From: [Phialemoniopsis] sp. UDSM-2020
Taxonomy: Eukaryota > Ascomycota > Sordariomycetes > Thyridiales > Thyridiaceae
Direction: 5' to 3'
DNA: 64,000 nt
NCBI GenBank assembly: GCA_018873225.1
Contig: JAEILZ010000004.1
Coordinates: 3,658,001 to 3,722,000, forward strand
The translations under genes were made by a program, and so were the position numbers. The notes below the pieces were generated by a model, which saw only the letters and a list, made by a program, of their open reading frames with translations, was not told the origin of the DNA and did no database searches. The number at the start of each line of letters is the position of its first letter. Position 1 is the stretch's first letter. Below, piece by piece: positions 26,940-64,000 of the stretch.

Positions 26940-28046
26940 ATGTCTGCGCCACAACAGAACAAAGCCCTGAGCTCGAAGGTCAAGATCCCACCAAAGTATG
27001 ACACGGTTCAAAAACGCATAAAGTCATTTCCTACGTCGGGATGCCCTCTCTCCCTTCTCCAGCGGCACGTTCTGGCCGTGTTCGGATTTCGATACTCTTC
27101 AAGCACACCAGATGACTGCTTTGGGAGGTGCCTAGAGTGCAGCTGGACCTTCGAGGAGGAAGAGATGGAGTATCTCGCAACATCGCTTGTCTTGGAGCTT
27201 GACGACTTTCATGACGACGGCTGTTCCTTTGCTGAGGCGAGATGCTCTACATGCTCCAAGACGTTCACACAGTGGGCGTTGTGGTGGGACCACATCCTTT
27301 CGGCTCATATTGTCCACAGTGTTCTTGCCAAGGAGCATGCTGCATATCAGAATCGCCACAAGAAAATTGAGCCGGACCTCGGATGTGGTAGAGAGAAACA
27401 GCCTGGCACTCTATCGGGACTGAAACGAAAGGGAGAGGGCGCAGTGCCTTCATCAACCAAGAAGCCCAAGGTTTCCGGCTCAGGCATCTCGACCAACAAG
27501 CCCTGTGTTTTGGAGTCCGACAAGAACGATGCTAAGTCCGCCGCTAGTGAGCAGGAGGTTAAATCTACCACTCTGAACGTCAAACTAAATAGCAAGCTAG
27601 ATACCAAGTCCACCAACAGGCAGGATACCAACGCGGCTAGCAAGATGGAGCTCGAGTCCTCTGAGAGGCAAAACAAGAACTCGAGCAAGCAGGACGCTAA
27701 GTCTACTAAGCAGGACACCAAGTCGACCAAGCAGGAGGCAGTGAAGTCGACCAGCAAGAAGCCTGCAAAGTCCAGCAAGTCGGACGTCGTGGTCATTGCA
27801 TCATACAATCCGACCAACAAGAAAATCATCATTGGCACTACGGATCAGATTCATGGCGCAGGGGACGTCCCCCAGCTGACCACGAGAGAGATGATCAAGA
27901 AGCTCACGACTTTGGTGCAGGATGCCGCAGCTCGGAGTCTCACGGATGCCAATCTAACAACCACTTTGGCGACCATGACTGCAGGCGAGTACGATACTCT
28001 GCGCGAAGACATCGAGCTCCAAAATGCGATCCAAGGCTCAGCTTGA
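26940..28046 (+). CDS. Array member 1: BIR-like + C2H2 + CTD protein
   Basis: 368 aa, single exon. The zinc module uses C64, C67, H91 and C95; the C2H2 finger uses C102, C105, H118 and H123. RIKSF (residues 26-30) and VLAVFGF (44-50) match the RxxTF and LAxxGF positions. The linker (about 140-280) is highly charged, with repeated KSTKQD-type units and a KKPKV NLS-like patch. The CTD spans about 281-368: VVVIASYNP, KKIIIG, PQLTTREM and MTAGEYDTL. It is the first intact member next to ACH1 and is most similar in its CTD to member 2. Confidence 0.85.
   Translation: MSAPQQNKALSSKVKIPPKYDTVQKRIKSFPTSGCPLSLLQRHVLAVFGFRYSSSTPDDCFGRCLECSWTFEEEEMEYLATSLVLELDDFHDDGCSFAEARCSTCSKTFTQWALWWDHILSAHIVHSVLAKEHAAYQNRHKKIEPDLGCGREKQPGTLSGLKRKGEGAVPSSTKKPKVSGSGISTNKPCVLESDKNDAKSAASEQEVKSTTLNVKLNSKLDTKSTNRQDTNAASKMELESSERQNKNSSKQDAKSTKQDTKSTKQEAVKSTSKKPAKSSKSDVVVIASYNPTNKKIIIGTTDQIHGAGDVPQLTTREMIKKLTTLVQDAAARSLTDANLTTTLATMTAGEYDTLREDIELQNAIQGSA
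27660..27785 (+). repeat. Lys/Ser/Thr/Gln coding microrepeat in member 1
   Basis: The DNA repeats AAGTC(C/G/T)AC(C/T)AAGCAGGA-like units, encoding KST-KQD repeats in the linker. Such unstable repeats can change linker length between strains. Confidence 0.5.
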
Positions 28047-29013
28047 GAAACTTGCCAGGTGGAGAGATACCTCCAGTCATCCACTGGCAACAGCCTTTGC
28101 CGGAGAGCCTCACTGGTAAGTGTAAATGTACTTATACCTTACATATCATTGTGCTAACGAGTACCGCAGAATCAGAGGTAGGGGCAGTGCGACTACACAA
28201 GAAGTACGTGCAGTTGAAGGAGGCGGCCTGACGATGACCTTTGGGACTTTCGAGGCTTTCTATGCCCGCATACAGGATCTCTGCTCTTTCTCTCGAGAGA
28301 GGGTTCGATGAGTGCGGGTTCTATATCTAAGAGACGACGTTTCTCCATGGTCAAGAATACAGAAGTGATACAATAGAAAAGACCATGGGTGCAGAAGGAG
28401 GAAAGCAGACCTTTTGCAATTGAGTAAGCTAAAAGACTAGGCTCACTTAATTCAAATGATTTACCATATCGTGGGAATATCATTGCTTCCTTTATGCGGA
28501 TAAGCTGAATGTGGACCTCATTGAGTAATTGTCTACGACAGCACCATGAGAAGCAAGGATACTTCATATCCGCACCGAGAAGGTCTCTACCGACTACTAA
28601 AGCCCTCGCATACCCGATGTCTTCGTGCTTTTGATCACTGCGTCAAGTGACCCGTCTACAGTTCTTGAGAATGTAAAGATTGGGAACATGATAATCTGAG
28701 ATTCTACCCTCAACGCATTGCACCCTTCATCCTCCGTTGCGCCACTGGAAGGCTCTACTCTTCTCTCGCCTCCCAAACAAATGCACCTCACCTGGTTTAC
28801 ATCACAGATTATCGTCAGCTTTCAGCTGTCTGGTTTATTCGCGCCAATCTCGCCGAAAGCCGTTTCTTCGTGGCCTCAAACTCACAATCTCGCCTAGTCA
28901 TTTCTTCACTTCTGCGGCTCGTCATATTCCAGCTTTGCTCTCCTACGATCCCTTCGCTCTGTTCAACACGCCATCATCTCGGCATAAGACTCAGTCAGTC
29001 GTGTTCCGCCAAG
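28047..29013. other. Intergenic in array
   Basis: No second gene is supported. An in-frame open stretch before the chosen start of member 2 (28870-29013) looks like leader sequence rather than protein, because it lacks any family motif. Confidence 0.5.
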
Positions 29014-29988
29014 ATGAGGATCACAGAGTCTCCGATGTTCGTCTCGGAGCAGCCTCGTGGCGAGGACTACGTGGCTGTTCACAAACGCTTCGAGTCATTC
29101 GCTGACCGAGATTACTCCGACGTCAAATGCTACGTTCTTGCAATCTGCGGCTTCATCTACGCTGATTACTATTCGGTCGCATGCTGTCCCTGGTGTGAGA
29201 ACATCGTCGACGACTACCAGACGAACCAAGTCATCCAGTCAATCGAGGATTGCCCCAAGTATCACAAACTCAACTGCACGTTCATCAACGGCCAAGTTCC
29301 CAAATGCCAAGACTGTTCCACCACCTTCAACACTCGACGGGCATGGAAGCACCACATGCTCAGCGAGCACCTCATCCCGGACCTGCTCAGACCCGAGACG
29401 GGGGGTGTCGCCAAACAGCGCCCAAAACGTGACTCGTCATCCCCTGAGTTTATCTCGAACTCCAAGCCTTTCGGCGATCCTAGCTGGGGCACTAGCAAGA
29501 CCAAGCACAAGCACCGCGAAAACACCACCGGACTCCCTCGGCGCCCCAAGCATCGACAAAGTGGAGCATGGCCGCCGACGCCCAAGCGCAGTCGTGAGGC
29601 GACGGGCCACGACCACTCCGGCTCGCGCAACAAAAGGGCCAAGCGCACGCCCAACGGATCTTCGCCCCAGCCTGTTGTGATCAAGTTGTCTTCCCCCGAC
29701 TTACCCGAGGACCTCCTGGCGATCGTCTCGTACAACCCTGCCAGCAAGAAGATTATCGTGGGCCGTGCGGAGGACAACCACTTAATCGCTGACTACCCGC
29801 GCTTCACGGCCTGGGGAATGATCAAGGAGCTCATTCCCATGGCTAGGGAGGTATCTGTCTTTTCGAGCCGGGGCAGCGAGGCGGACGAGGCAACCCGGAA
29901 GCTGAAGACGAGGTTTGCCACGATGAGCCGCGCCGAATACGACAACTTGCGCTCGCTTGTGGAGCTTGTGGCTACGATTCACGGTTGA
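29014..29988 (+). CDS. Array member 2: BIR-like + C2H2 + CTD protein
   Basis: 324 aa from the ATG at 29014 (MRITESPMFV); an earlier ATG at 28870 is in frame but adds 48 residues without family character. Zinc module: RFESF at 25-29, CYVLAICGF, C58, C61, H84, C88. C2H2: C98, C101, H114, H119. The linker is rich in basic residues (RRPKHRQS, PKRSREATGH, NKRAKRTP), a good nuclear-localisation candidate. CTD about 228-324: LLAIVSYNPASKKIIVG ... FTAWGMIKEL ... MSRAEYDNLR. The YNP(A/T)xKKII(I/V)G string is nearly shared with member 1, suggesting a direct duplication. Confidence 0.85.
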   Translation: MRITESPMFVSEQPRGEDYVAVHKRFESFADRDYSDVKCYVLAICGFIYADYYSVACCPWCENIVDDYQTNQVIQSIEDCPKYHKLNCTFINGQVPKCQDCSTTFNTRRAWKHHMLSEHLIPDLLRPETGGVAKQRPKRDSSSPEFISNSKPFGDPSWGTSKTKHKHRENTTGLPRRPKHRQSGAWPPTPKRSREATGHDHSGSRNKRAKRTPNGSSPQPVVIKLSSPDLPEDLLAIVSYNPASKKIIVGRAEDNHLIADYPRFTAWGMIKELIPMAREVSVFSSRGSEADEATRKLKTRFATMSRAEYDNLRSLVELVATIHG

Positions 29989-30726: not shown

Positions 30727-31428
30727 ATGGGTATTGGATCAGACCCTCCACAGCCCGGTTCTCCAAAGAGAGGGTTTCCAATGCGGAAGACGGAGACACC
30801 GACCACCAGCACTGCTTCAAGAATCCCCGTACCGGAAGAAACCGTAAACACCAGCACTGCTTCCAGCATACCTGTTACGAAAGAGACCGTGAGGCCCGGT
30901 GAATACCTGCTCGACGAGAGCCTCCGTTGCGGAGACGCCTGGTAGGGTTCAAGCATCTCCACTCCAACAATCCCGGTTGCGAAAGCGCCTACCGAAGACA
31001 AGACGAAGAATATTGTGGGCCCCCCTTCGATGATCAACTTGCATTACCGATACAACTGCGAACGTTTCAAGACACTCTCTGACCGCCGTTGGCCATACAC
31101 CCTCCTGGCAAGACATACATTAGCTGCTTTCGGATTCTACGACACGTACGGGCAGCCGCCCAAGAGATGTATTTCCTGCCTGAAGCCGCTCACACAGGGC
31201 GAATTCCATCAACTACTGCGGTCGAAAGACTGGGACCTGTCATCGTGTCATTATCCCGGGTGCGACTTTATCGCCAGGCTCAGGTGCAATTGCTGTGGAC
31301 ATATCGCCTCGACGTAGGATGAGTGGAGGCACCATGTGCTGGACACTTTAATCGTACCGCTCATGGTCACGCAGGAGATATCACTTTTCACGCCGCAGCT
31401 ACCGCAAAAGAGGGCTGCAAGCTCCTAG
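30727..31428 (+). pseudogene. Array member 3, broken (in-frame stops)
   Basis: One reading frame carries family sequence but is interrupted by stops at 30943, 31315 and 31426. After a Thr/Pro-rich start (with two similar ETVNTSTAS/ETxxTST blocks), the frame contains RYNCERFKTL, WPYTLLARHTLAAFGF, CISC, then CHYPGC (HxxxC) and CNCC. The stop at 31315 falls inside the C2H2 finger; the frame resumes with DEWRHHVLDTL, where the second zinc His is Leu. No CTD can be recognised downstream. The promoter and start look intact, so a short BIR-like peptide could still be made. Confidence 0.75.
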
Positions 31429-32179: not shown

Positions 32180-32989
32180 ATGGCTCCCGTTGCGATGCCG
32201 TACAAAGAGTTTCAGGGTCGCTACGACACCTTCACCAATGAAACATGGCCAGCTACAACCCTGGAACGAAAGCTATTGGCATATGCCGGGTTCATTCATA
32301 GCCGATGTCTCAAAATGAAGACCTGCGTGTCGTGCCGCCAAGAACTGAGCTACAGCACAGTAGAGCGCATGTTCGATACCGGCAACTGGGACATGAGCAA
32401 GTGCCATACAGACCACTGCGCTTTCGCCTTCTCAAAGTACCCAACATGCTACGATTCCCTATGCTGTTTCAAGTTGGAGAGCTGGAGCGTTTGGAAGTGC
32501 CACATGATCAAGAAGCATCTCATTGACGACATCGCCGAGTGGGAGATCCGCCATGCTAGAGATCACGACACCATCACCTCTCTGAAACAAATCGCGGGAC
32601 TCACACCAACCAACAAACGCAAAGAGACGGACTCAACAACAGACGACCAAACCGCCAAAAAGGCCAAGTCAAACCCGCCCGCCCTGTCACTGATTGCTCC
32701 GATGACTGTAGCGTCAGTCACACCACCCGAGGAAGTCGTTGTCATGGTCTCGTGCGACCGGGTCACCAGGAAAATCAAACTTGCTCTAGTGGACGATATC
32801 GACGAGAGTATTGCGCCACAGCGCCTGACGGCCCTGGAGTTGATCGGCAAGCTGGCACCGGCGCAGGGCGTTGGCCACCAGCAGGCAGCCATCGTGCCAA
32901 GCCTAGTAACTCGCTTTGCAGCACTGACGCGAACCGAGTACGAAAGCTTGCGTAACTACATCCGTGTTGCCAACATGTGGCAGAGTTGA
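32180..32989 (+). CDS. Array member 4: BIR-like + C2H2 + CTD protein (compact)
   Basis: 269 aa, one of the shortest complete members, with almost no N-terminal extension. RYDTF at 14-18, WP at 23-24, LLAYAGF at 32-38; zinc ligands C49, C52, H76, C80. In the finger the first Cys pair is spaced C90-x4-C95 instead of CxxC, with H108 and H113. The short linker has KKAKS. CTD about 174-269: MTVASVTPPEEVVVMVS ... RKIKLALVDDID ... LTALELIGKL ... LTRTEYESLR. The ELESW and TVASV blocks pair it with member 5. Confidence 0.85.
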   Translation: MAPVAMPYKEFQGRYDTFTNETWPATTLERKLLAYAGFIHSRCLKMKTCVSCRQELSYSTVERMFDTGNWDMSKCHTDHCAFAFSKYPTCYDSLCCFKLESWSVWKCHMIKKHLIDDIAEWEIRHARDHDTITSLKQIAGLTPTNKRKETDSTTDDQTAKKAKSNPPALSLIAPMTVASVTPPEEVVVMVSCDRVTRKIKLALVDDIDESIAPQRLTALELIGKLAPAQGVGHQQAAIVPSLVTRFAALTRTEYESLRNYIRVANMWQS

Positions 32990-33656: not shown

Positions 33657-34646
33657 ATGTGGTCCAGCTCGTCCGGTCCTATGAGGCGTTCCTCTCGCAT
33701 CGCAGCCCTTCAGACCACAGAAATTGAAACTCACTTATCGACTCAGAGCCCCAGGGAAACTTCGAGTGCGATACCTTTCACAGATGCAGCTATGCCTCGC
33801 TTACTCGTGGCTCCGTCTATGCAGGAAGACTATGGAACGGTCATGGGGCGATATTCCTCTCTGCTCCAGGAAGATTGGGACTATGAACCTGCTACACTGT
33901 TTCTTGCAGCGTGTGCAGGTTTCTTTTGCACGTATAAAACATACATCCAGTGTGTCTCCTGTGTCCTCAAGCAGGAACCCGAGACTATCGGCAAGCTCGC
34001 ACAGTCGCCGGACTGCAACCCGACTGCTTACCATGCGAAGGACTGCGCCTTCACGTCGTCGAAACATCCAAAATGCCACGAGTGCAATATCGAGCTGGAG
34101 TCATGGCTCAGCTGGAAGAACCACACGATCAAACATCACATGCCCGACTCCATGATTCCTGAGTCGGCCAAAGGATCCGGCAGATGGGCCAGAGTATCAC
34201 TATCGTCCGTGGGCGGGCCACCAGCGAAGAAGGCCAGGCCTAACCCCCCCGAGCTCCACCGCATACCGACTGTCACCGTGGCATCCATTGCCCCATCATC
34301 GAGAAAGAAGACCAGGCGAGCTGAGGAGAAGCTCTCTCGCAGCGCGATCATCACAGTGGTATCGACCAAGCCCTCTCCCAACATCGCTGCCCAGGTCTCA
34401 TACGATTCGGCCAAGAAGACGATCGCCATCTGCTCGCTGTATGATGTGGACGAGAAGCTGGATCTCCCGCGCTTGACAGTCTGGGAGATGATCCGCAAAC
34501 TGCCTACGTTGAAGGACGCGACACCGCCTAGAGGAGCACAGAACCCTGGCGTTACAAACCGGGCCTATATCCTTGCTTTAATGGGTCGTAGCGACTACGA
34601 CAACTTGCGAGACTATGTTCGTACGTGGAACATGATGCACGACTGA
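33657..34646 (+). CDS. Array member 5: BIR-like + C2H2 + CTD protein
   Basis: 329 aa. An N-terminal Ser/Arg/Thr-rich 55 residues precede RYSSLLQEDW (65-74) and LFLAACAGFF (81-90). Zinc ligands C99, C102, H126, C130; C2H2 C140, C143, H156, H161. The linker has KKARPNPPEL and RKKTRR basic patches. CTD about 230-329: IITVVSTKPS ... AAQVSYDSAKKTIAI ... LPRLTVWEMIRKLPT ... MGRSDYDNLR. The finger (IELESWLSWKNH) and the PNPPEL / TVASIAPS linker words recur in member 4, supporting a local duplication. Confidence 0.85.
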   Translation: MWSSSSGPMRRSSRIAALQTTEIETHLSTQSPRETSSAIPFTDAAMPRLLVAPSMQEDYGTVMGRYSSLLQEDWDYEPATLFLAACAGFFCTYKTYIQCVSCVLKQEPETIGKLAQSPDCNPTAYHAKDCAFTSSKHPKCHECNIELESWLSWKNHTIKHHMPDSMIPESAKGSGRWARVSLSSVGGPPAKKARPNPPELHRIPTVTVASIAPSSRKKTRRAEEKLSRSAIITVVSTKPSPNIAAQVSYDSAKKTIAICSLYDVDEKLDLPRLTVWEMIRKLPTLKDATPPRGAQNPGVTNRAYILALMGRSDYDNLRDYVRTWNMMHD

Positions 34647-35645: not shown

Positions 35646-36629
35646 ATGCCGAACGAGGCGAAAGAAGAGTGTCATATCCCATCGGACATCCTACGCCTGA
35701 GAGAGACGCTCAAAGCCAAGGGACTGTTGTCTATCAAGCAACGGTCTGCAACATGGGCCGGGGGCAATCTTGACGTTCCATTTCCTGAGTTCCTTCAGGA
35801 CAATCGCTTCTTGTGGGCTGCAGAGGGTCTGGTAATTCCGGGAAAGGGTCTCCTGGGAGTTAAATGTGTCTCTTGCCAGGCTACCTTCCACCCAGACAGG
35901 GAGGACACAATCATCAAGGTGGCTGAATACAGAAAGGGTCACTACGAGGATTGCCCTCTACGGCTGCGATGGTGCATTGACTGCACCGAACAATTCCCAA
36001 ACTGGGAAGCATGGAGAGCCCACCTCGATGGCCACAAGAAGGTGTTTATCGCAAAGTCCACGCCACACAACCACGAGAAGGAAGTTGCATCAGCATCCGA
36101 CCCAGCACGTATCGAGTCGGGCACCAGCCTGAAGAGAGCCCGCAATGTCGGGGATGAATCCAAGGTTCCCGACCCCAAACGAATCAAGCCATCGACACCC
36201 TCCCTCTTCATGGGCCCAGCCAGAGATTCGGCGAGGCTAGAGCTAGTCCCCTCGGAGAATGTCGAAGTGGCTGGAATATCTACATCTAAGAGCACAACGG
36301 TGACCCCCTTGGAACCTACACTTTCGACAGAGGTCCTCGTTGTCATCACTTACTACCCAGGCTGTCGTGATACATCGGTTGCTGTGGTCGATGAACTGAA
36401 CCACGACAGGAAGGTGCCATGCCTCTCTGCACAAGAGGTCATCACCAGGATCGCTCCGATGTCAAAGATCTCTATGATTCGCGTGGATGGCGCTGATGCT
36501 GACAGCTCGATACATCTCTCGCTGAACGCCCGCATGAGAAGAGAGGAGTATGTCCTGCTGTTGGATCTGGTGAAGGCGATCAACACCATGAATAGCCTAG
36601 GATCTGGGAAGACCACTTCCGATAATTAG
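35646..36629 (+). CDS. Array member 6: divergent BIR-like + C2H2 + CTD protein
   Basis: 327 aa from the first ATG (35646). The BIR-like front is the most diverged of the + strand members: no clear RxxTF, with SATWAGGNLDVPFPEFL in its place. The zinc ligands remain: C74, C77, H99, C103, then C110, C113, H126, H130 (finger with x3 between the histidines). The linker carries LKRARN and PKRIKPS. CTD about 218-320: TTVTPLEPTLSTEVLVVITYYPG ... VAVVDEL ... PCLSAQEVITRIAPM ... MRREEYVLL. The KPGKGLLGVKCVSC-type lead into the first Cys pair resembles members 4 and 5. Confidence 0.8.
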   Translation: MPNEAKEECHIPSDILRLRETLKAKGLLSIKQRSATWAGGNLDVPFPEFLQDNRFLWAAEGLVIPGKGLLGVKCVSCQATFHPDREDTIIKVAEYRKGHYEDCPLRLRWCIDCTEQFPNWEAWRAHLDGHKKVFIAKSTPHNHEKEVASASDPARIESGTSLKRARNVGDESKVPDPKRIKPSTPSLFMGPARDSARLELVPSENVEVAGISTSKSTTVTPLEPTLSTEVLVVITYYPGCRDTSVAVVDELNHDRKVPCLSAQEVITRIAPMSKISMIRVDGADADSSIHLSLNARMRREEYVLLLDLVKAINTMNSLGSGKTTSDN

Positions 36630-37420: not shown

Positions 37421-38056
37421 TCAGGTGTTAGTGGAGGCATCTGTAGTTTCGTTGCATTTAAATGCATTCTCTTTCCTTCGCTTGGCTAGAGACATGTTCT
37501 CTTCGCTGAGCACTGTCTGTGTTCGTTTATTTGAGGGTCGCAGCTCTGCCGAACTTCCTCTATTCTCTGAGTCCATAGGGAAGACTGACCCAGATTCGGA
37601 TTCGGTTTCGGTTTCGGTTTCAACGTCTGCCTCTGCACTCGGCTCTTCTTCAAAAAGTGCCAGCCTGACTATGTGGCGAGTAAGGTGGCTCTTCCATGAT
37701 GACCAGTCCGCAAATGGCCCGAGACAATGTTTTTCGATGCATACGCGGTCGAGAAGAAGGCAATCGACTTGGTGATACTCACTCATATCCCAGGAATGAT
37801 CTGCCAAAAGTCTGGCAGCTGATTCCTCCGTGATACGGTGGTGGCATGAGATACATTTGATGGGGCGTTGACCATCTTCCGAATACGAAAAGCCCATTTG
37901 GGCAAGGCAACGTCGTTTGGTGATAGAAGAATACCATCCGGTAAGTGGAAAACTCTTGCAACGAGCTCTGCACCTGAGATTCTCATTTGTGAGCCGTTCA
38001 CGCAATCGACGTGATGCGTCGAAGACCTCCTGCCTGCTGCGCATTTTTATCGACAC
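37421..38056 (-). CDS. Array member 7: BIR-like + C2H2 protein lacking the CTD
   Basis: 211 aa on the opposite strand. CKSFPLTGW (33-41), RCLAQMGF (49-56); zinc ligands C68, C71, H95, C99. The finger pair is C106-x4-C111 with H124 and H128. After the finger comes an acidic repeat VETETETESESGS encoded by a hexanucleotide microsatellite (about 37595-37625), a basic SLAKRRKENAF patch, and then the stop. There is no CTD. Either this is a natural two-finger form or the gene was truncated during inversion. ATGs at 38056 and 38044 are both possible starts. Confidence 0.75.
   Translation of the reverse strand: MSIKMRSRQEVFDASRRLRERLTNENLRCRARCKSFPLTGWYSSITKRRCLAQMGFSYSEDGQRPIKCISCHHRITEESAARLLADHSWDMSEYHQVDCLLLDRVCIEKHCLGPFADWSSWKSHLTRHIVRLALFEEEPSAEADVETETETESESGSVFPMDSENRGSSAELRPSNKRTQTVLSEENMSLAKRRKENAFKCNETTDASTNT
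37592..37625. repeat. Hexanucleotide microsatellite (GGTTTC)n
   Basis: Consecutive TCGGTT/TCGGAT units within member 7 encode alternating Glu-Thr/Glu-Ser on the - strand. Its copy number may vary. Confidence 0.6.
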
Positions 38057-38596: not shown

Positions 38597-39991
38597 ATGG
38601 AGCAAACTTTCCGAATCGGCGTCAAGCCGTTAACTGCTGACGCAGCTGGCGAGCTCATCGCCGACATTGCCCCCGGCCTATTCCTCGAGACAAAGTTCGC
38701 ATCGTTTGAAGCCAGACTGGATTCCTTTGAGCGCTTCGAATTCCCACACTCCGATGTCGTCCGATGCATCTTTGCATTTGCCGGCTTATTTCGCATTTCC
38801 GAAGACCATAATGGCCATGCCGCGCGGTGCGGGCACTGTAACTTCGGCTTCAGCGAGACGGATCTCGAAATGGTCCTGAAAGGCGATCTGCAACCTCACC
38901 GCCACTACAGCGGCTGCTTCTGGCGCCGTACTGGAGCTCTGAAGTGCTTCGCCTGCCGCCATACCTGCGCGAATTGGAAGACGATGTTGGACCACGCTCT
39001 CCTGGCCCATCTGGTGGAGAGGATGCATTACAAGGCTGTGAAGTGCGACGAGATACTGCACGCCTTGTACGACAAGTTCATCGTTCTCATCAACTGTCAC
39101 AACAAACGGGGTCCAGAACTACCATCGAACACTCTTGCGCCCGCCTCTGATCCTGAGTCTGAGGCTGCGGAGAACGCGAAGTTTGAGGCCTTCGTGCGCA
39201 TGGTTGTACAGGCATATGACAGCATCGGCGTAGACATCAGCGATTACCTTGACAGGCTGCCCGACACTGACGACAACCTCACCTGCACTGGACCGAACAC
39301 TCCGCTCTCAGTGGACTACCAGTCGTCCTCCCAGTCGACAGACTATTTCATGGTCGAGAGATCGGTCAGTGGCAACAATGAGAGCCCAGCCGAGGGCGAG
39401 GGCCGCCCTGTCCAAGACTTGCTCCACGATGCAGCTGAGCTGGAACACTCCGTCTCTCTGCACCGCTCCGAGCTCGACGAGCTCAAGATTACGCACGCCG
39501 AAGACATTGAGGCGCTGAAGCGTGAGCACCAGGCGGAGCTGGCGACAACGAAGGCAGCCTACGAGGAGAAGCTCGCGAACATGCAGACGGAGGTCTTTGA
39601 GAAGTCGCGGCTGGTTGCCAAGTTTGCCGAGGAGCTATCGCGTGCGCAAAAGCCGGAGGACAAGCCCACCCAGAATGTCGCGACGGGAGACATCGTCGTC
39701 ATAGCGACCTGCGACCCGGTTACGAAGAAGGTCGCTATCGGTACTAGCACTGATGCCGGCCTCGCCTCCGCCCTCCCGCGGCTCACTGCCGCCGACATGA
39801 AGGACAAGATCGTTGAACGGCAAGCCATGGCGAACAACGAGCAGTCAGACAAGAGCCGCCTTTTCTGGAGAAACTCGGCGGAAGTTCGCAGGGCTTCCCA
39901 GGGTCAGGAACCTGTGGTGGCCGTGATGAGCTACCAGGAGTACGAGGCTCTTTGCTCGCTGTTCCGCATGGGCGGAAATAATGTCGCCTGA
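38597..39991 (+). CDS. Array member 8: BIR-like + C2H2 + coiled coil + CTD
   Basis: 464 aa, the longest member. The front shows LDSFERFEFP and CIFAFAGLF; zinc ligands C78, C81, H103, C107 and finger C117, C120, H133, H138. Residues about 272-351 form a long heptad-rich helix (LEHSVSLHRSELDELKI ... LKREHQAELATTKAAYEEKL), clearly a coiled coil not present in other members, which should mediate oligomerisation. CTD about 360-464: GDIVVIATCDPVTKKVAIG ... LPRLTAADMKDKI ... MSYQEYEAL. The linker before the coiled coil is acidic rather than basic. Confidence 0.85.
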   Translation: MEQTFRIGVKPLTADAAGELIADIAPGLFLETKFASFEARLDSFERFEFPHSDVVRCIFAFAGLFRISEDHNGHAARCGHCNFGFSETDLEMVLKGDLQPHRHYSGCFWRRTGALKCFACRHTCANWKTMLDHALLAHLVERMHYKAVKCDEILHALYDKFIVLINCHNKRGPELPSNTLAPASDPESEAAENAKFEAFVRMVVQAYDSIGVDISDYLDRLPDTDDNLTCTGPNTPLSVDYQSSSQSTDYFMVERSVSGNNESPAEGEGRPVQDLLHDAAELEHSVSLHRSELDELKITHAEDIEALKREHQAELATTKAAYEEKLANMQTEVFEKSRLVAKFAEELSRAQKPEDKPTQNVATGDIVVIATCDPVTKKVAIGTSTDAGLASALPRLTAADMKDKIVERQAMANNEQSDKSRLFWRNSAEVRRASQGQEPVVAVMSYQEYEALCSLFRMGGNNVA

Positions 39992-40430: not shown

Positions 40431-41648
40431 ATGGACGCTTCTCTTCCAGTGCGAACCCGATTTAATCTTCCCTCTCGCGATTCTCAGTCTCGCCGAGGCT
40501 CTCAACTTCCACACCGAATTCGAACTCATCAGACACCTCCGATGGATCCGCCTCAAGTGCCAGACCCTTCTCAGGGCTCTCAGCATGCTCGCGCGCTGAG
40601 TTCGGCATCTGTCGATAGCAGCACTGGCGCACCAAAACTCCTGACAGATTCCAGGACCAACCTGCTCGAATCTTCCACCGTTTCCGATGTCTATACCGAA
40701 ATGCTGCTTGCAGAGCCACTGCGATGTTTGCGACACGAGGAGGATACTCTGTCCATGGAACAGCGGTACATGACTTTCAAGAGCTCAGGTTGGCCGCACT
40801 CGAATGCCCAGCGCCTTCTCCTTGCTACCCTGGGATTCTACCGGCTTGCTGACGGAGCAGTCTGCTCCGGCTGCTGCACCCTTCTTCCCCGCAGCGAGGT
40901 CTCGACTATCATTGACTATCCGAATGCTTGGCGAGCAAGAGAGTTTCATCAGCACAATTGTCGTTTTGCTGGAGCACAGGAGGACTGTCTCTCGTGTGGA
41001 GTTTACTTCCACGCCACAGTCCCATGGAAAAAACACATCTTCCATGCGCACATCCTGCCCATGCTCAAGAGCAGCGGAAACGAGGGTGAATACAACAATG
41101 CTTTTTGTCAGAGTGAAAAACTAGGATCAATCATCACTACAGCATCTCCTTCAGGAGAGCGCTCCCTAGCGGTTTCGCGCAACTTCATCTCAGACAACCC
41201 AACACCACCTCTCATACCGGCAACTCGTACGGCGGCTGCAATTCAGGAAGCCATCACAGCAGCACCGTCTCCGCCCACGACACCGCTCCCATCTTCTACT
41301 CATGATGCATCACGAGCCAATCTCTCTCTGACAGCGGAGATTACTACTGTGGCGTCCATCGAGCCCTCGGATCATGTTGTCGCTCTGGCATACTACGATG
41401 CCCACAAGAAGACATTTTCCTTCTTGTGTATCGACCAAGTCGTGTCCCGCCAAGTTCCCCTCCTTACGGCCCAAGAGGTGTTTACTAGAATGACCGGGTC
41501 GAACGGTAACCGAGCGGAGGGCTTAGGAGGCGCGCCTTCGGATACGACACGGGCTCTTGCACCGCAAAGTACGATGGCTTGGATGACGAGGGAGGAGTAT
41601 GGGAACCTCAGGTGGTGGACAGAGGCCCTTCGGGGTGGCCAGGTTTAA
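40431..41648 (+). CDS. Array member 9: BIR-like + C2H2 + CTD protein
   Basis: 405 aa. A 105-residue Ser/Pro-rich N-terminal extension precedes LSMEQRYMTFKSSGWPHS (107-124) and LLATLGFYRLADGAVC; these match a BIR front very well. Zinc ligands C145, C148, H173, C177; C2H2 C186, C189, H202, H207. CTD about 301-405: EITTVASIEPSDHVVALAYYD ... LLTAQEVFTRM ... MTREEYGNLRWW. The order and wording are almost those of member 10 (EQRYxTF, DGxVCSxC, FHQHxC, CLSCGVxxHxTVPW, ITTVASIEPS), so 9 and 10 are recent duplicates. Confidence 0.88.
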   Translation: MDASLPVRTRFNLPSRDSQSRRGSQLPHRIRTHQTPPMDPPQVPDPSQGSQHARALSSASVDSSTGAPKLLTDSRTNLLESSTVSDVYTEMLLAEPLRCLRHEEDTLSMEQRYMTFKSSGWPHSNAQRLLLATLGFYRLADGAVCSGCCTLLPRSEVSTIIDYPNAWRAREFHQHNCRFAGAQEDCLSCGVYFHATVPWKKHIFHAHILPMLKSSGNEGEYNNAFCQSEKLGSIITTASPSGERSLAVSRNFISDNPTPPLIPATRTAAAIQEAITAAPSPPTTPLPSSTHDASRANLSLTAEITTVASIEPSDHVVALAYYDAHKKTFSFLCIDQVVSRQVPLLTAQEVFTRMTGSNGNRAEGLGGAPSDTTRALAPQSTMAWMTREEYGNLRWWTEALRGGQV

Positions 41649-48844: not shown

Positions 48845-49570
48845 TCAACGGGCCAAAGATCGGATCAGGTACATATGGAATTTGAGGGCTTTAAGTTCTT
48901 TCGGTGTCATTCTCACCATCACCGATGTTCCGAGATGTCCCTCGTTCTGCGCCTCGTCTTCAGCCTGTTGAGCCTGTGCATCCATGCGGAATAACTGCTT
49001 CATGACATCCGTGGCCGTTCGAGAAGGAATCGTCTGGCTGCAGTCGACACTGGCAACAGTTGCGAGCGAAGCAGACTTGGTTCTAGGGTGGAATGAAGCA
49101 ATGACAATCGTCTCCTGAGTCATGCTTGATCTGCCGTCGAGGAACGGAGCCAGGGAATCTTGGGTGAGGCAGTGTCCCGGGGCTTCGAAAACCGCTGGTG
49201 CGAAGGAAGGTGTCAGGTGGTAGAGGACGTGATGATGCCTCCAGTCCTGAAGGCTGGGAAATTCCCATTCGCATATGGTGCACGCCGTCTCAGTCTTGTG
49301 GAGATAGGGGCATCCCCACCCATGCAATCCCTCCGAGCAATAGTCCTCCTCGCCAAAGAGTTCGTGAAGTTTTTCTTCGTCAAAGCGTACGAACCCGGGA
49401 CAAGAAACACATGTCGTCTGCTCGTCCTCCTTTTCTGCTAGGTAAAACCCTCCTACCGCGAGCATATAATGTTTTGCCGGAGGCATATCGCCCCATCCAT
49501 GGGTGCCGTGGGCGAAAGTATCAAATCGAGCCTTGAGGGAATTGAATCTGCCCTGATCCGAAGCCTCCAT
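48845..49570 (-). CDS. Array member 13: BIR-like + C2H2 + CTD protein (compact, inverted)
   Basis: 241 aa; I start at the ATG at 49570 (MEASDQGRF) since family sequence follows at once and the upstream in-frame residues look like leader. RFDTF (15-19), HYMLAVGGFY (34-43); zinc ligands C54, C57, H83, C87; C2H2 C97, C100, H113, H118. The linker is very short and has no basic cluster. CTD about 148-241: ETIVIASFHPRTKSASLATV ... RTATDVMKQLF ... MTPKELKALKFH, where the usual Tyr of the EY motif is Leu. One of two members on the - strand, converging on the reductase gene. Confidence 0.85.
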   Translation of the reverse strand: MEASDQGRFNSLKARFDTFAHGTHGWGDMPPAKHYMLAVGGFYLAEKEDEQTTCVSCPGFVRFDEEKLHELFGEEDYCSEGLHGWGCPYLHKTETACTICEWEFPSLQDWRHHHVLYHLTPSFAPAVFEAPGHCLTQDSLAPFLDGRSSMTQETIVIASFHPRTKSASLATVASVDCSQTIPSRTATDVMKQLFRMDAQAQQAEDEAQNEGHLGTSVMVRMTPKELKALKFHMYLIRSLAR

Positions 49571-50080: not shown

Positions 50081-50455
50081 ATGGCAGACAAGAAACCCAC
50101 AGAGGAAGAGAAAGGCACGCTGGATGCCTTCTTCTTCAAGCGAAACCACAGATTTCTGACCTTTATGACGCACCAGCACTGGCAACATGACACTCTGATG
50201 CCGGCCGAGATGGCCGACGCCGGGTTCTATCTCGAGGAAACGCTGCTCTATGTCAGGTGTTCCATTTGCGGGCTGCGGGTGAACCCTTACAACGATGGAT
50301 TCGACCCGTGGCAATACCACATCGAGGCGTCGCCCGCCTGTCGATATGTCGCATGGATGAAGAGGCGCGATGCACAAACGGCGGCTTTGGAATATGCACG
50401 ATGGGAGGCTGAGCAAGCTGCCCAAGGCGAAGCTTCGCAAAATCAGACTTCCTAG
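50081..50455 (+). CDS. Solo BIR-domain protein 1
   Basis: 124 aa, single exon. Residues 20-90 are a canonical BIR domain: RFLTF (24-28), W34, MADAGFYL (44-51), C60-x2-C63-x16-H80-x6-C87, with FDPWQYH before the His and ASPAC after it. Spacing matches BIR (CxxC-x16-H-x6-C) exactly. A short charged helix and AQGEASQNQ tail follow; there is no RING, CARD or second BIR. BIR domains bind short peptides, as in IAP proteins and survivin/Bir1. This is far shorter than fungal Bir1, so it is not that gene. It sits inside the array, whose members carry a modified BIR-like module, and is probably the same lineage without finger and CTD. Confidence 0.88.
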   Translation: MADKKPTEEEKGTLDAFFFKRNHRFLTFMTHQHWQHDTLMPAEMADAGFYLEETLLYVRCSICGLRVNPYNDGFDPWQYHIEASPACRYVAWMKRRDAQTAALEYARWEAEQAAQGEASQNQTS

Positions 50456-51003: not shown

Positions 51004-51906
51004 ATGGACCGCAACGCCAATCCACTGCCGCGGCCCGGTCAGGACCAGGGCCAGACACGAATCAACCAGATCCACTCCTCTGTTCTTGGAAGCTACGCGT
51101 TCTTCCTCCTTAGCCCTTTGTATCTCTGTCTCTTCGGCCTCCTTCCTATCACTGTTACCCTGGTTCACATCTTCCTGGACTACGCAATGTCCTTGTTCAA
51201 GCCACGGATTCGCTTTGTCACCCTCACCTGCAACCAAGACACCCTCGAACGCTACCTTGACAAATTCCGACGCGAGGGTTTCCACATCAAAACCAACCCC
51301 GATCTAATTTCACAGGGAGGTCTCGCTCGCAACGAGAAGCGGACCTGGAACATCAAAGTCACTTGGCACATCGATTCAGCCATCTTTTATGGCGTTCGCT
51401 ACCTGATCTCGCTTCTCGCCGGCAAAAAGAAGAAGGCGCCCAAGGCTGCTCTCGACAAGGATGGCTACAAAACCGCAGTCAAGCTCATGGGCCCAGGCTT
51501 CAAGCCAATCTACAAGCCTGGGGACGAGGAGGCATTCTGCAAAGTCTTTGACCAGACCAAACTGAACCCATTGATTCTCGCCATGGCCCCCGAGGATCTG
51601 GAGCTCCTCGGCAAGGATGACTTTGTCCACATCCGCGCCACCTACCACCCGCTTAGCAAACAGTTCGATGTCACGGCCCTAGAGGAGAGGTTTCTGACTC
51701 CGGGCATGCGACATAGGAACCCCACTGATGTGGTCAATGCACTTCTCCACAGCGTTCCGCCCAAGGACGATCAGCCTGTCTGCTTCGCCAAGATGACTAA
51801 GGAGGAGTACGACGAGCTGTTGCGCCTTATGAAGTCGGGCTACTCCGTAGCCGACATCTCGACTCGCCGCCAATGGCTCGCGGATGCCGGCTATGATGAC
51901 CATTGA
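51004..51906 (+). CDS. Membrane-anchored protein carrying the array CTD without zinc fingers
   Basis: 300 aa, single exon. Residues about 26-62 are strongly hydrophobic (SYAFFLLSPLYLCLFGLLPI, TVTLVHIFLDYAM), one long or two short membrane helices. Residues 65-200 are a soluble segment of unknown fold containing a GKKKKAPKAA patch. Residues about 205-290 match the array CTD: FVHIRATYHPLSKQFDVTALEE, a PTDVVNALLHSV block where others have LTAxEVxxxL, and MTKEEYDELLRLM. There is no CxxC pair. This shows that the CTD is an independent module that can be combined with a membrane anchor. Function unknown. Confidence 0.78.
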   Translation: MDRNANPLPRPGQDQGQTRINQIHSSVLGSYAFFLLSPLYLCLFGLLPITVTLVHIFLDYAMSLFKPRIRFVTLTCNQDTLERYLDKFRREGFHIKTNPDLISQGGLARNEKRTWNIKVTWHIDSAIFYGVRYLISLLAGKKKKAPKAALDKDGYKTAVKLMGPGFKPIYKPGDEEAFCKVFDQTKLNPLILAMAPEDLELLGKDDFVHIRATYHPLSKQFDVTALEERFLTPGMRHRNPTDVVNALLHSVPPKDDQPVCFAKMTKEEYDELLRLMKSGYSVADISTRRQWLADAGYDDH

Positions 51907-52374: not shown

Positions 52375-52671
52375 ATGCCTGCCAGTCCGTCAAAGTTTGA
52401 CCATGAACACGAGCGAATCTGGACGCTCACCGTTCGCGGCTGGCCTCACCAGTCCCCCACAGCCCGGGATGTCGCCTATGTCGGCTTCTACTTTCCCGAT
52501 GCGAGCAAGACCCTCCGCTGCCCCTACTGTGGCTACCAATTCTGCGACTACGCCGAAGGTTTTGACCCCCAGGCTGTGCATCAGCGGAACTCACCCAACT
52601 GCTCGCGTGTCAAGGCGATTAAGGAGTACCAGCGGACTGCCCCGCGGGCCGAGCTGCCCAACGGAAACTAG
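52375..52671 (+). CDS. Solo BIR-domain protein 2
   Basis: 98 aa from the ATG at 52375 (MPASPSKF); an in-frame ATG at 52261 would add 38 residues without domain character. Almost the whole protein is one BIR domain: RIWTL (14-18, usual Phe replaced by Leu), WPHQSP, VAYVGFYF, C49-x2-C52-x16-H69-x6-C76 with GFDPQAVH and SPNC. Two open residues from the finger are an extra Cys (C57). The sequence GFDPxxxH and xSPxC relate it directly to solo BIR 1, about 2 kb away, so the pair probably arose by duplication with the membrane-CTD gene between them. Confidence 0.87.
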   Translation: MPASPSKFDHEHERIWTLTVRGWPHQSPTARDVAYVGFYFPDASKTLRCPYCGYQFCDYAEGFDPQAVHQRNSPNCSRVKAIKEYQRTAPRAELPNGN

Positions 52672-54892: not shown

Positions 54893-55783
54893 ATGGCTGA
54901 CGAAGGGGACTTGACTCCATCGTCGGCTGTTCTTGCCAAGCGACCTGGACAAGCTACTCTCGGCGAACCGGCTCGCAAGATCGCGCGTCGTGCGAAGGTG
55001 GAGGAAAGCTCAATCTTGAAACCACTTGACAAAACGTGTTACAATTCAGTCGCAAAGCGAGCAGCAACGTTTACAGGTCAATATCTCTTTTTGCCATACG
55101 GAGATGCAAAAGCCCTGATCCTAGCGTTTTGCGGATTTGCGTATATTGAAGTTGACCGGCGGACCGCTTGTTTTTCCTGTCGACGCTGGCTTACACGGCA
55201 ACAAGGTGAGGATCTCATCAACTCAGTGGACTGGAATTCGGGAAAGCTTCACGACGAAGGATGCAATATGTTTGCAGTTGTGAAAAACTACTGTCCTATC
55301 TGTTACATCTATTTCACCTCCTGGGCAGCATGGAAGCATCACATTTGGATGACGCACCTCCATCCGAGTACACTCGACAAAGGAAAGGCGACAGCATCAG
55401 ACACAAGCAAGGTGGCAGTCACCTGTGACTCGATGGTCACCATCGTGCCTACGACAATGATCTCCGTCCAGCCTTCGCGCGAGGTCTCAAGCCAGGTCAC
55501 CGTGGTCGTTTCTTACAACCCTTCACGTAAGAGCATCTCAGTTGCGTCTGTAGACGAGATCGATGCGACTGAGAGCATTCAGACTATGACAGCAGAGCAG
55601 ATGATGGAATTAGTCTCGACGATGATCTCTCGAGGGCAACCTTCGGCGGATCAGACGGCTCAGCAGTGCTCACATGTGCCCATTACAAGTCAGGTCACGG
55701 CATTGATGGACCGAGCGGACTACAACATTCTACGGGCAAACGTGCGTGCGGTTCGGCAGATGGTTGGACTTGTGGGCCGCTAA
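54893..55783 (+). CDS. Array member 14: BIR-like + C2H2 + CTD protein
   Basis: 296 aa. Unusually, the basic cluster is N-terminal (ARKIARRAKVE, 27-37). RAATF (56-60), ALILAFCGFAYI (74-85); zinc ligands C93, C96, H120, C124; C2H2 C134, C137, H150, H155. The linker is only about 30 residues. CTD about 181-296: MISVQPSREVSSQVTVVVSYNPSRKSISVASVDEID ... MTAEQMMELV ... MDRADYNILR. All eight zinc ligands and the CTD are intact. Confidence 0.86.
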   Translation: MADEGDLTPSSAVLAKRPGQATLGEPARKIARRAKVEESSILKPLDKTCYNSVAKRAATFTGQYLFLPYGDAKALILAFCGFAYIEVDRRTACFSCRRWLTRQQGEDLINSVDWNSGKLHDEGCNMFAVVKNYCPICYIYFTSWAAWKHHIWMTHLHPSTLDKGKATASDTSKVAVTCDSMVTIVPTTMISVQPSREVSSQVTVVVSYNPSRKSISVASVDEIDATESIQTMTAEQMMELVSTMISRGQPSADQTAQQCSHVPITSQVTALMDRADYNILRANVRAVRQMVGLVGR

Positions 55784-56578: not shown

Positions 56579-57730
56579 ATGATGGCGTCAATTCAGGCTG
56601 AGCTGCGACCAGACAGCCTGCCGATCCAAGCTGCTCTGGCAGCCGGCGGTACCGAATCAGATTTTGAGACTCTGCGAGCAAGGTACAACTCCTTCTCAGC
56701 TGGTGGTCAGCCCTGGCCGTCAGCTAGCATCAACAGATATAGCCTCGCCATTAATGGCTTCAGACGCACCGGTCGTCTCGAAGTCGCGTGCACTACCTGC
56801 GGTGGCAAGCCGACCTCTCATTCTATCAGGTTCAACGAGCCGATGGACAGAGATCAAGCTCAATTTCACGAGCGACATTGCCCCTTCCTAGCTACCCTGT
56901 CGTCCTGCGAGCTTTGCCACGAGAAGTTCTCCAGCCGTCCCGAGTGGAGAGCCCATCATCATACTCATCACTTCAAAGAGTTTGAGAAGGCATGCAAGAT
57001 TCAGCAGACTGCAGAGCCGCGCACTCAACTTGAGCCACCAGTTCCATCCAACCCTCCAATTCAAGACGAGTCTTCTGCCAACCTGATTTCGGTGCTATCC
57101 AAGGCCGAGAGGCGCGCTGCAAATAAGAGAGCCAGGAGAGCCAGACAAATGGCTGAACGACTCGCCATGATAGAGGAAGGCGCCATGGAATGGGACGAGG
57201 CGCACAAAGAATCCCAAGCACCTGAACATTTTCACACGCAAGGAAGCTCTAAGAAGGCCAATACCACCCAGAAAAAGGCCCGAGCACGAAAGAGCGCGAA
57301 GGCTGCCGCCCGCGCTGTCTCCCAATCTGCGTCTGCCGGTATTTCTGGTGGCAATTCCAATTCTAAGATCTCATCCTCGTCAGCTCTAGTTCCGACTGTT
57401 CCACTCCCCACCGGGGAGTCTCGCGCTGCTTCAGACCGTCGGGGTCCCGGTGTGGAGCTGATCATGTCGACCTGGTTTAACTCTGGAACCAAGGAGTTCT
57501 TCATCGCGAAGGTTGACGACATGACTGCCGATCCCGGCCTAGGATTGTACCTTGCCAAGGACATAACCGATTTCATCATCCGCCGCAACAAGTACGAGAC
57601 AGAGCAGGCCGCTGCCAAGGGCGGCCAGAAGCCGGACACGTTCAGCTTTCACGTCGTGGGCCGTATGGAGGTGGAAGAATATGCGTACTTGGCATCTTAC
57701 GTCGGAGCTCTGAAGGTTATGCTTGCTTGA
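56579..57730 (+). CDS. Array member 15: BIR-like + C2H2 + basic linker + CTD protein
   Basis: 383 aa from the first ATG (56579; a second ATG follows directly). RYNSF (35-39), WPSASINRYSLAINGF; zinc ligands C71, C74, H97, C101; C2H2 C110, C113, H126, H131. The linker (about 160-270) is strongly basic and helical (AERRAANKRARRARQMAERL, KKARARKSAKAAARA), the clearest NLS or nucleic-acid-binding segment of the family. CTD about 288-383 is more diverged: VELIMSTWFNSGTKEFFIAKVDDM ... LAKDITDFII ... MEVEEYAYLASYV. Confidence 0.83.
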   Translation: MMASIQAELRPDSLPIQAALAAGGTESDFETLRARYNSFSAGGQPWPSASINRYSLAINGFRRTGRLEVACTTCGGKPTSHSIRFNEPMDRDQAQFHERHCPFLATLSSCELCHEKFSSRPEWRAHHHTHHFKEFEKACKIQQTAEPRTQLEPPVPSNPPIQDESSANLISVLSKAERRAANKRARRARQMAERLAMIEEGAMEWDEAHKESQAPEHFHTQGSSKKANTTQKKARARKSAKAAARAVSQSASAGISGGNSNSKISSSSALVPTVPLPTGESRAASDRRGPGVELIMSTWFNSGTKEFFIAKVDDMTADPGLGLYLAKDITDFIIRRNKYETEQAAAKGGQKPDTFSFHVVGRMEVEEYAYLASYVGALKVMLA

Positions 57731-58327
57731 GACTCAACAGGTGTCAGTTTCGAGACTGGCAAACTCGAGGGTCAATATTCTTTTTATCTGATTCCTTTCC
57801 ATAGTTGTTTTCTTTTTCTCCACACGCGTTGTTTTGTCTTCATCTTCAAAGAACAGGTTTCTTCCATATAAAACTATACATCTCGAGGTAAGTTCATATG
57901 GTTACCATCCATTCCTTTCCCCGCCATGATTCTGTTTAGGTTGCTAACATTAGATGCTAGACACGATCAGCGTTCAAGAGTTACAAATGCAGGCTTGAAC
58001 CGAGCTTCATCGCGTACTGCGTAATGCGCTAGAAAGATGCTCGAGGAGATATGGTTTAAGGGGGCAGGCGTTACGGAACAGGAGCATGAGGATACATAAT
58101 ACTAGCAGTATTCTCCGTAGCCGTTACAGGTGTTGAAGACGGCACAACGACTTCAATCTCTATTCGCGGGATCACTGTACTTTATTTCTTTCTCGGCTGC
58201 GTTGTGTTCAGTACCATTGCTCAAGACAAGGGAAAATAAAATAGTTCTTCAACATCAAGAAGCTACATACAGCGCTCGGCAAACAAGACAGGCCAGGTAT
58301 CCTATACCAGCCAACCCAGTAAGCCCA
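57731..58327. other. Intergenic
   Basis: 597 bp between convergent genes; nothing recognisable. Confidence 0.4.
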
Positions 58328-62324: not shown

Positions 62325-63270
62325 TGGCTGATGTCAAGAGCGGGAGTGCTCATGGGGGGCTTCTCGCTAGCCAAATGAATGGACCACAGCTAAGGGATAA
62401 TGGTAGGAGAAGGCTTGTCCCATTCCATCGCGTCTTGTACTGACGACCATAACAGCAGATTGCGAAGGAGACGCATCCTTCCTTCGTCGTCAGAGTGATG
62501 CGAGAGCAAGAGTGCAGAGTAGCACCACGCTGGAGGGAAGGTCATTGCATGGCCATAATGCTTTGCTTGTGCTTTTCTTTTCATGGGGACCAGGACGGTC
62601 TCTCCGCCTTCAGTCACACAGTGTTGGGTCAAGGACGGGTATGTCTGATGCAGACCTCGGTTCCTATCTTTCTACTGCTTTCTTGCCCTGAACACCTATT
62701 TGTTTCTCGCCTTACAGTTGCAGGACAGTGAGATAGCACCAAAAGTACAAAATGTATTGAACACATTGCCACACAAAACCTGCTGCACTGAACGCCCAAT
62801 ACGAAGCCCCTCTACCTCAACTACTCCAAGTACAGACTTAACGAGGGTTCCATGTAAGGAACAATCTGTGAGTCTTTGCATAAGGGATACGAGGTCCGGG
62901 ATTGAAGTTGTGACCGGCAAGGATCTTCACACCAATGGGTTACGCGGTCGCCAATAAGGCTTGGCTCGAGGGGACTGCAGATCATTCTATCACCCATAAG
63001 CGACTAGAGAGGGCAGCTCGCTGAGATTGGAATCATTCGATGAGGGAAGGACACGAGCTTGTTACTGTTCGAGCCAAATTTATTTCCACCGCTCTCCACA
63101 TTAGGAATTATCCCACTCACTAAATCGCGTGGACATCTACAGATGGGACACTCTGGGTACATCACCAAGAACCCACAAACCTCTCAGATCATCAATGCAT
63201 CACCCAGGCCAGTGAGTTGAACCCAGCATTGCTTCAATTCAAAGCTAGCTCTAATAAGCTTTCATCTAGA
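62325..63270. other. Intergenic in array
   Basis: 946 bp without a supported gene. Confidence 0.4.
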
Positions 63271-64000
63271 ATGCCATCTTCAAAGAGAAAGCGCCCTGCC
63301 GCAGAGATGTCAGGAGCCAACGACCACGCGTCTCCCGATCGCCAACCAGTGCGTTTCCCACGCCCGAACCCGCGGCCTGGCTACGCTGAGTCTATGGCAA
63401 AACGCTTCAAATCCTTCCTGGATCCAAACTGCCCAATCAAACAGGAGATCACATATATGCTTGCAGCATCTGGGTTCTACTGGATGGTTCCGAACTCGAG
63501 CATGGCTGTTGAGTGCTCCTGCTGCGCTACCACGCCGTTGTGCGCTCACATCCAGGGTGCGACCTTCTGGGACTTCGTCAACGACCACGAGCCCGGTTGT
63601 CCGTTCACGTTCAAAGAATGGCAATGCCAGCTTTGTGGTGCGGACTTCGCAAAGTTCCAGAATTGGCAGGAGCATCACAACGTGGACCATCGCATTCCGC
63701 TTCTTCTCGACGCTCTAACCGCACGCAAGACCGATGTGGTCATTGGCAAGAAGATCGGCTCGGCCGCCAACCTGGTCGTCCCTTCTGCTTATATCCGCGC
63801 GACGATCACCAGTGACCCCACCACGAAGCGTATTCTTCACACAAACTGCGGAGCATGGGACAAGGAGAGCGAATCTGACAAGGCTCACACGGCAGCAGAG
63901 GTTCTCTCCCGGTTCGTGCAATTGGGACAACGACAAAAGAAGTTGAACAAGGAGGAATATGACGTGGGCAAACTATCCCTCACATTGACTGTGCGGATGA
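63271..64000 (+). CDS. Array member 17: BIR-like + C2H2 + CTD protein, cut by window edge
   Basis: An open frame of 243 codons from the ATG at 63271 (MPSSKRKRPAAEM) runs to the right edge with no stop. The start has an immediate basic cluster. RFKSF (45-49), MLAASGFYW (63-71); zinc ligands C82, C85, H106, C110; C2H2 C119, C122, H135, H140. The linker is short and the CTD begins near 169 (YIRATITSDPTTKRI ... HTAAEVLSRFV), so only its end is missing. Its presence shows the array continues beyond the window. Confidence 0.85.
   Translation, partial: MPSSKRKRPAAEMSGANDHASPDRQPVRFPRPNPRPGYAESMAKRFKSFLDPNCPIKQEITYMLAASGFYWMVPNSSMAVECSCCATTPLCAHIQGATFWDFVNDHEPGCPFTFKEWQCQLCGADFAKFQNWQEHHNVDHRIPLLLDALTARKTDVVIGKKIGSAANLVVPSAYIRATITSDPTTKRILHTNCGAWDKESESDKAHTAAEVLSRFVQLGQRQKKLNKEEYDVGKLSLTLTVRM

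What the first reader, a model, noticed from the sequence alone, without database searches (positions are those of the whole stretch)
26940..64000. A 37-kb array of paralogs with a BIR-like zinc module, a C2H2 finger and a new conserved C-terminal domain
About 17 intronless genes share the order RxxTF..WP..LAxxGF, CxxC...HxxxC, CxxC-x12-H-x3/4-H, disordered linker, and a CTD with VSYxPxxKxI and MTxxEYxxL. I know no described family with this combination. Seen directly: zinc ligands and spacing in each member, and their clustering. Inference: the family arose by tandem duplication from a BIR-type ancestor, acts in the nucleus, and diversifies quickly, which recalls recognition or genome-conflict gene families.
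Basis: partly seen in the sequence, partly recalled or inferred. Interest (0 to 1): 0.95.

Follow-up and report, generated by a model that had tools for sequence, protein, structure and literature searches.

The report
Fungal array of BIR-finger proteins
A fungus carries a row of about eighteen related genes, old duplicates whose proteins join an altered form of the zinc domain known from cell-death inhibitors to a second zinc finger and a small end domain with no known relative so far; what they do is unknown.

Summary
The window lies in a 44-Mb genome, fungal by its genes. From 26940 to just past its end, 15 genes encode a BIR-like module, a C2H2 finger, a linker and a conserved C-terminal domain (CTD). 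Three more copies lack a whole CTD, and one gene has the CTD without zinc modules. The first module is a BIR relative by profile and by predicted fold, but its zinc His lies four residues before the last Cys (H-x3-C; 16 of 16 aligned copies), not seven. The CTD model is fairly confident (pLDDT 85.5) and has no clear match among PDB or viral models. The array is one clade, and its four supported paralog pairs are neighbours. Paralogs average 23% identity, dN is below dS in the closest pairs, and some copies are broken: an old, constrained family. 'Fast diversification' is not shown. Function and nuclear site are inferred.

The parts
26940..28046 (+). array member, 368 aa: BIR-like, C2H2, linker, CTD
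29014..29988 (+). array member, 324 aa; P0001 is its ortholog-like relative (55% in zinc modules, 35% in linker, 57% in CTD)
30946..31314 (+). degenerate member: BIR-like module, stop inside the C2H2 finger
32180..32989 (+). array member, 269 aa; closest to Pfam BIR (22.5 bits, 23.2 with its neighbours in the frame; cut-off 22.9)
33657..34646 (+). array member, 329 aa, sister of 32180 (90/81)
35646..36629 (+). array member, 327 aa, diverged (long branch)
37421..38044 (-). member with zinc modules; stop before the CTD
38597..39991 (+). array member, 464 aa; weak sub-threshold Pfam matches in its linker, several of them coiled-coil families
40431..41648 (+). array member, 405 aa; closest pair with 42516 (56% in zinc modules)
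42516..43844 (+). array member, 442 aa
44545..45840 (+). array member, 431 aa
46448..47146 (+). array member; its module extends upstream in an open frame (from 46295) without ATG, so the start is unclear
48845..49570 (-). array member, 241 aa
50081..50455 (+). short canonical BIR gene, 124 aa, CxxC-x16-H-x6-C
51004..51906 (+). 300-aa protein with the CTD at its end, no zinc ligands, hydrophobic segment near its N terminus (read by eye)
52375..52671 (+). short canonical BIR gene, 98 aa, CxxC-x16-H-x6-C
54893..55783 (+). array member, 296 aa; the protein modelled
55484..55780 (+). CTD of that member, modelled alone: strand-strand-helix-strand-helix, pLDDT 85.5, pTM 0.74
56579..57730 (+). array member, 383 aa
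61401..62324 (+). array member, 307 aa; first zinc Cys replaced by Tyr, 31 residues between the second Cys and the His
63271..64000 (+). array member cut by the window end (263 aa in the genome)

Best explanation
Identity (well supported): the array is an old family at one locus, with gains and losses of copies, that shares an ancestor with a dispersed, conserved BIR-C2H2 protein of sordariomycete fungi. The BIR fold lacks His at the usual place and has an invariant His three residues later, about one helical turn along, and a C2H2 finger follows 6-12 residues after the last BIR Cys, so the two zincs probably form one compact unit. A low-confidence, probably disordered linker, often with NLS-like clusters, leads to a small alpha/beta CTD without known relative. 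Mechanism (inferred): non-enzymatic, mostly nuclear adaptor or receptor proteins. The zinc unit would bind a peptide or protein end, the usual role of BIR folds, and differ between paralogs; the CTD would bind a shared partner or dimerise. Shown: architecture, homology, ligand position, fold models, one-clade descent. Inferred: zinc binding, nuclear site, peptide binding, CTD role.
Confidence: 0.42

Rival explanations
1. Sequence-specific transcription factors: the C2H2 finger with flanking basic stretches binds DNA, and BIR and CTD are dimerisation or cofactor modules.
For: The finger motif C-x2/4-C-x12-H-x3/4-H is in 17 of 18 proteins examined (the exception is the CTD-only 51004), with Lys or Arg just after the core Trp position in 12 of 17; NLS-like motifs are enriched; the dispersed proteins have a basic stretch after the finger.
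Against: One finger only; base-contact positions (-1, 2, 3, 6; entropy 2.8-3.2 bits) are not above the loop positions x1-x3 and x5 (3.1-3.3), though above helix positions 1 and 5 (2.6, 2.3); the core Leu position is Trp in 16 of 17. The position names are recalled.
Confidence: 0.25
2. Non-self recognition or cell-death regulators: a repertoire that works with the HET/NLR genes of the region.
For: 10 of 150 listed HET matches lie within 300 kb of the array (mean 2.0; 1.6% of random places have as many) and 13 within 500 kb (0.5%); three HET genes lie in the 60 kb downstream, with NB-ARC and AAA matches below their cut-offs; the BIRs of BcBir1 are anti-apoptotic in Botrytis (PMC3158046, passages); broken copies occur.
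Against: Within 60, 100 and 200 kb the HET excess is weak (30%, 6%, 8% of random places); radii were chosen after looking; dN below dS in the pairs compared; no strain data; no HET or NLR domain match in the array proteins.
Confidence: 0.15
3. Chromosome or cell-division adaptors like fungal Bir1/survivin, multiplied.
For: Bir1 is the BIR protein described for fungi (PMC11596484 and PMC3158057, passages); survivin structures are among the VIA matches.
Against: The genome has its own pair of canonical BIR exons on C7; array proteins have one BIR with other ligand spacing and a CTD that matched nothing.
Confidence: 0.08
4. Relict array: mostly remnants of an old expansion, no present function.
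For: Three copies without a whole CTD and one unclear start among 18.
Against: 15 full copies, 14 of them with all zinc ligands; domains kept over linker against P0001; dN below dS in the pairs compared.
Confidence: 0.1

Closest known systems
BIR (PF00653; NAIP, XIAP, cIAP, survivin, Bir1)
   Same: R-x-x-(T/S)-F, LA-x-x-GF, CxxC, later H and C; profile and predicted fold match
   Different: 20-25 residues between CxxC and His (31 in 61401) instead of 16, then H-x3-C instead of H-x6-C; none of 16 excised modules reaches the Pfam cut-off (best 21.4 of 22.9 bits)
Dispersed BIR-C2H2 protein (this genome, contig C7, L019; Thyridium curvatum E0L32_003013; P0003-P0006)
   Same: H-x3-C BIR, C2H2, linker, C-terminal M-S/T-R-x-E-Y motif
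   Different: one copy found here, 17-18 residues (23 in P0005) between CxxC and His, 13 before the finger, strongly conserved; only 23 columns at the CTD end align
C2H2 zinc finger (PF00096, PF13894)
   Same: C-x2/4-C-x12-H-x3/4-H in the 17 zinc proteins examined
   Different: one finger, Trp for the core Leu, below the Pfam cut-offs in the 19 ORFs scanned whole
NuBaID / zf-C3HC (PF07967)
   Same: weak match in 2 of 16 modules (best E 0.0059); a BIR relative in nuclear proteins (recalled)
   Different: too weak to file; not listed for the whole ORFs

Membership tests
BIR domain (PF00653) | score over Pfam gathering cut-off | tested here: inconclusive
   7 of 16 modules match at E up to 1, best 21.4 against 22.9; member 32180 flagged over (22.5, 23.2 with its neighbours), 54893 under (21.0). 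Over it: 50081 (44.7), 52375 (40.7), C7 protein (31.1)
BIR domain (PF00653) | homology by profile to solved BIR proteins | tested here: met
BIR domain (PF00653) | BIR fold | tested here: met
   predicted model of one member only:
BIR domain (PF00653) | zinc ligands CxxC-x16-H-x6-C | tested here: not met
   H-x3-C in 18 of 18 array copies; one search looked for H-x3-C by pattern, so the unbiased count is 16 of 16 alignment rows. Met by 50081 and 52375
BIR domain (PF00653) | peptide-binding groove | not tested
   no coordinates or docking available
Inhibitor-of-apoptosis proteins | anti-death activity, RING or caspase binding | not testable with these tools
   no RING match in Pfam scans of 19 ORFs; activity needs the bench
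Fungal Bir1 | two canonical BIR domains | tested here: not met
   array members have one module; two canonical BIR exons lie at C7:672547-673020
C2H2 zinc finger | C-x2/4-C-x12-H-x3/4-H | tested here: met
   17 of 18 proteins, all but the CTD-only 51004; 30946 not in that set
C2H2 zinc finger | Pfam gathering cut-off | tested here: not met
   best PF00096 19.6 against 25.2, best PF13894 17.6 against 27
GIY-YIG domain (considered for the CTD) | sequence or fold match | tested here: inconclusive

The most novel reading that the evidence does not exclude
A fungal recognition repertoire: an array of nuclear receptors in which a BIR fold, changed by moving one zinc ligand by a helical turn, is welded to a zinc finger and ends in a new CTD fold, kept by birth-and-death in a HET-rich chromosome region as part of a fungal immune or self/non-self system.
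Probability: 0.15. Interest if true: 0.88.

Novelty: new variant of a known kind. Interest (0 to 1): 0.6.

Why it matters
One review and one genome paper, of which I read passages, describe one fungal BIR protein type, Bir1 with two BIRs (PMC11596484, PMC3158057). Here a second type exists: a conserved BIR-C2H2 protein and an 18-copy array related to it. It offers a natural case of a zinc ligand that moved within a fold, a CTD without known relatives, and about 15 full paralogs for asking what BIR folds bind outside animals.

Tried and rejected
Recent duplication: rejected, since in 26900-64000 no repeat of 40 nt or more joins two copies (the one family found is a local pair 45 nt apart; seed 14) and the closest pair is 56% identical in its zinc modules. 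Repeat-induced point mutation: TpA/ApT is 0.44-0.69 and (CpA+TpG)/(ApC+GpT) 1.15-1.36 in 16 blocks, a little higher in array blocks for the second index but not in the range that I recall for RIP. Hypervariable DNA-contact positions: not seen. Identity against gene order over all pairs is weak (Mantel p 0.065 for N modules, 0.051 for CTD); only supported tree pairs show adjacency. dN/dS by YN00 failed with an error in all three comparisons; NG86 gave 0.30/2.88 (zinc, 40431/42516), 0.49/1.44 (CTD, same pair) and 0.63/1.71 (zinc, 40431/44545), with dS at or near saturation. CTD in sequence libraries: nothing better than E 0.31 in PDB and 0.049 in Pfam; in viral models the best row is E 0.36, prob 0.63. 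Homologs of array proteins among 5.8 billion: one, P0001, with one query and with 17 sequences (only the 7,996 candidates sharing most words were scored). The tool finds relatives sharing exact words only, so absence elsewhere is not shown. NCBIfam gave unrelated weak matches. Viral origin: not tested, as the one viral scan did not run; the dispersed gene in other fungi speaks for vertical descent. Paper searches listed no paper on such an array; they cover open-licence PMC only, and I judged papers by listing except the six whose passages I read. Organism: a relative of Thyridium is a guess from one ortholog (58% by BLAST, 71% in the alignment).

Rows dropped: A2 leaves out 51004 (no zinc), 30946 and 64714; A3 leaves out 37424, 30946 and 64714 (no CTD) and has 63271 cut at the window end; A4 leaves out 51004, 30946 and 64714. 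Pfam saw 19 ORFs whole. The tree has 27 rows; its maker warned that 38597 and the dispersed/canonical group are long branches that may meet falsely, and the dispersed group is not a single clade in the drawn tree (84% of bootstrap trees have it so). One search used 150 listed HET places (151 or more exist; the weakest of the three downstream HET genes is not among the listed rows) and contig lengths set to the last HET place except C6.
Full report
WHERE IT IS. Gene content is fungal: HET-domain genes, an acetyl-CoA hydrolase piece ending at 26302, and a TRP-type channel gene after the array. The dispersed relative of the family has an ortholog in Thyridium curvatum, a sordariomycete, so a sordariomycete is likely.

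WHAT IS THERE. Seventeen ORFs align, 16 over a zinc region. One search scanned the six frames of window plus 59 kb (123 kb) with profiles of the zinc and C-terminal regions. It added a degenerate copy at 30946 and a copy just past the window (64690-65298), and also gave weaker matches to the two canonical BIR ORFs and the C7 gene. In sum: 15 full members, 3 without a whole CTD (37424, 30946, 64714) and one CTD-only protein (51004). Sixteen of the 18 zinc-module copies lie on the plus strand. A ketopantoate-reductase-like gene (47595) and two minus-strand ORFs at 58621-59955 without Pfam match (a glycosyltransferase look is recalled) interrupt the row, and so does an ORF at 53291 without Pfam match over its cut-off.

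A search of the genome with Pfam BIR found matches over the cut-off inside the array at 50150-50350 (E 4.9e-10) and 52438-52608 (E 1.2e-8). They belong to short ORFs of 124 and 98 aa with the canonical CxxC-x16-H-x6-C and resemble each other (31%). The other places flagged over the cut-off are two BIR exons 180 bases apart on C7, a single-exon gene elsewhere on C7, and member 32180; member 54893 was just under.

A WIDER FAMILY. The single-exon C7 gene encodes BIR (over cut-off, 31.1 bits), a C2H2 motif, a linker and a C-terminal stretch with the motif V-M-S-R-x-E-Y-R-E-F. The database search returned five relatives, all with precomputed PF00653: P0002 of T. curvatum, whose source calls it a C2H2-type domain-containing protein, and four without organism. 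All six share H-x3-C. Profile comparison with the array gives E 6.9e-15 over BIR and C2H2 and a short match at the CTD end (E 2.2e-4, probability 45%, 23 columns). Array and dispersed gene therefore most likely share an ancestor in which the His had already moved. Against this: the CTD link is short and of low probability, and a genome search with the C7 protein did not reach the array.

EVOLUTION. In a tree of 27 zinc units the 19 array-type sequences, P0001 included, form one side of a branch (96/98; 96% of 200 bootstrap trees). The four supported pairs of paralogs, 40431/42516 (97/87), 32180/33657 (90/81), 63271/64714 (97/90) and 35646/37424 (92/88), are all neighbours, and P0001 pairs with 29014 (97/92). 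Eleven of 24 inner branches are open, deep order is unknown, and the program warned of long branches, 38597 beside the dispersed and canonical rows above all. Identity averages 23% in zinc units and 21% in CTDs. No DNA repeat of 40 nt or more joins two copies. Between 29014 and P0001, zinc unit and CTD are 55% and 57% identical, the linker 35%. dN/dS (NG86) is 0.30/2.88 and 0.49/1.44 for zinc unit and CTD of 40431/42516, and 0.63/1.71 for the zinc units of 40431/44545; dS is near saturation. The picture is an old family under purifying selection with loss of some copies. For comparison, the C7 protein and its T. curvatum ortholog share 85% in the zinc unit.

SURROUNDINGS. The genome has at least 151 HET matches. 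Around the array 10 of 150 listed lie within 300 kb (mean 2.0 at random places; 1.6% reach 10) and 13 within 500 kb (0.5%); within 60, 100 and 200 kb the fractions are 30%, 6% and 8%. Three HET genes lie in the 60 kb downstream, with sub-threshold NB-ARC and AAA matches. This recalls the idea of fungal defence regions raised in PMC10197012 (passage), but it was looked for after the fact.

MECHANISM. No Pfam family reached its cut-off in 19 ORFs scanned, so no catalytic domain is seen. Eleven of 18 proteins carry NLS-like motifs (5.1 in shuffles). BIR folds are described as protein-binding modules (PMC11596484, passage). I therefore favour nuclear adaptor or receptor proteins that bind a peptide through the BIR unit and a common partner through the CTD. 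DNA binding by the finger is the main rival. Neither was tested.

VERDICT. A new variant of the BIR kind with an unplaced CTD.

Noticed in passing
50081-50455 and 52375-52671 (+): Two short genes with canonical BIR domains sit inside the array and resemble each other at 31%.
   Followed up: yes
L019:895-1779 (-), contig C7: Dispersed single-exon BIR-C2H2 gene with a Thyridium curvatum ortholog, named there only 'C2H2-type domain-containing protein'.
   Followed up: yes
51004-51906 (+): Protein with a hydrophobic N-terminal segment (by eye) that ends in the array's CTD: the CTD in another architecture. A genome search with it hit only itself.
   Followed up: partly
C6 3.35-4.14 Mb around the window: HET-domain genes are dense in this region; three lie in the 60 kb after the array, with sub-threshold NB-ARC/AAA matches.
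   Followed up: partly
13679-17398 (-): 1239-aa ORF that looks, by eye, like a flavin reductase joined to a cytochrome b5 domain; not scanned.
   Followed up: no
30804-30890: A 42-nt unit repeated twice at 45-nt spacing beside the degenerate copy 30946.
   Followed up: no
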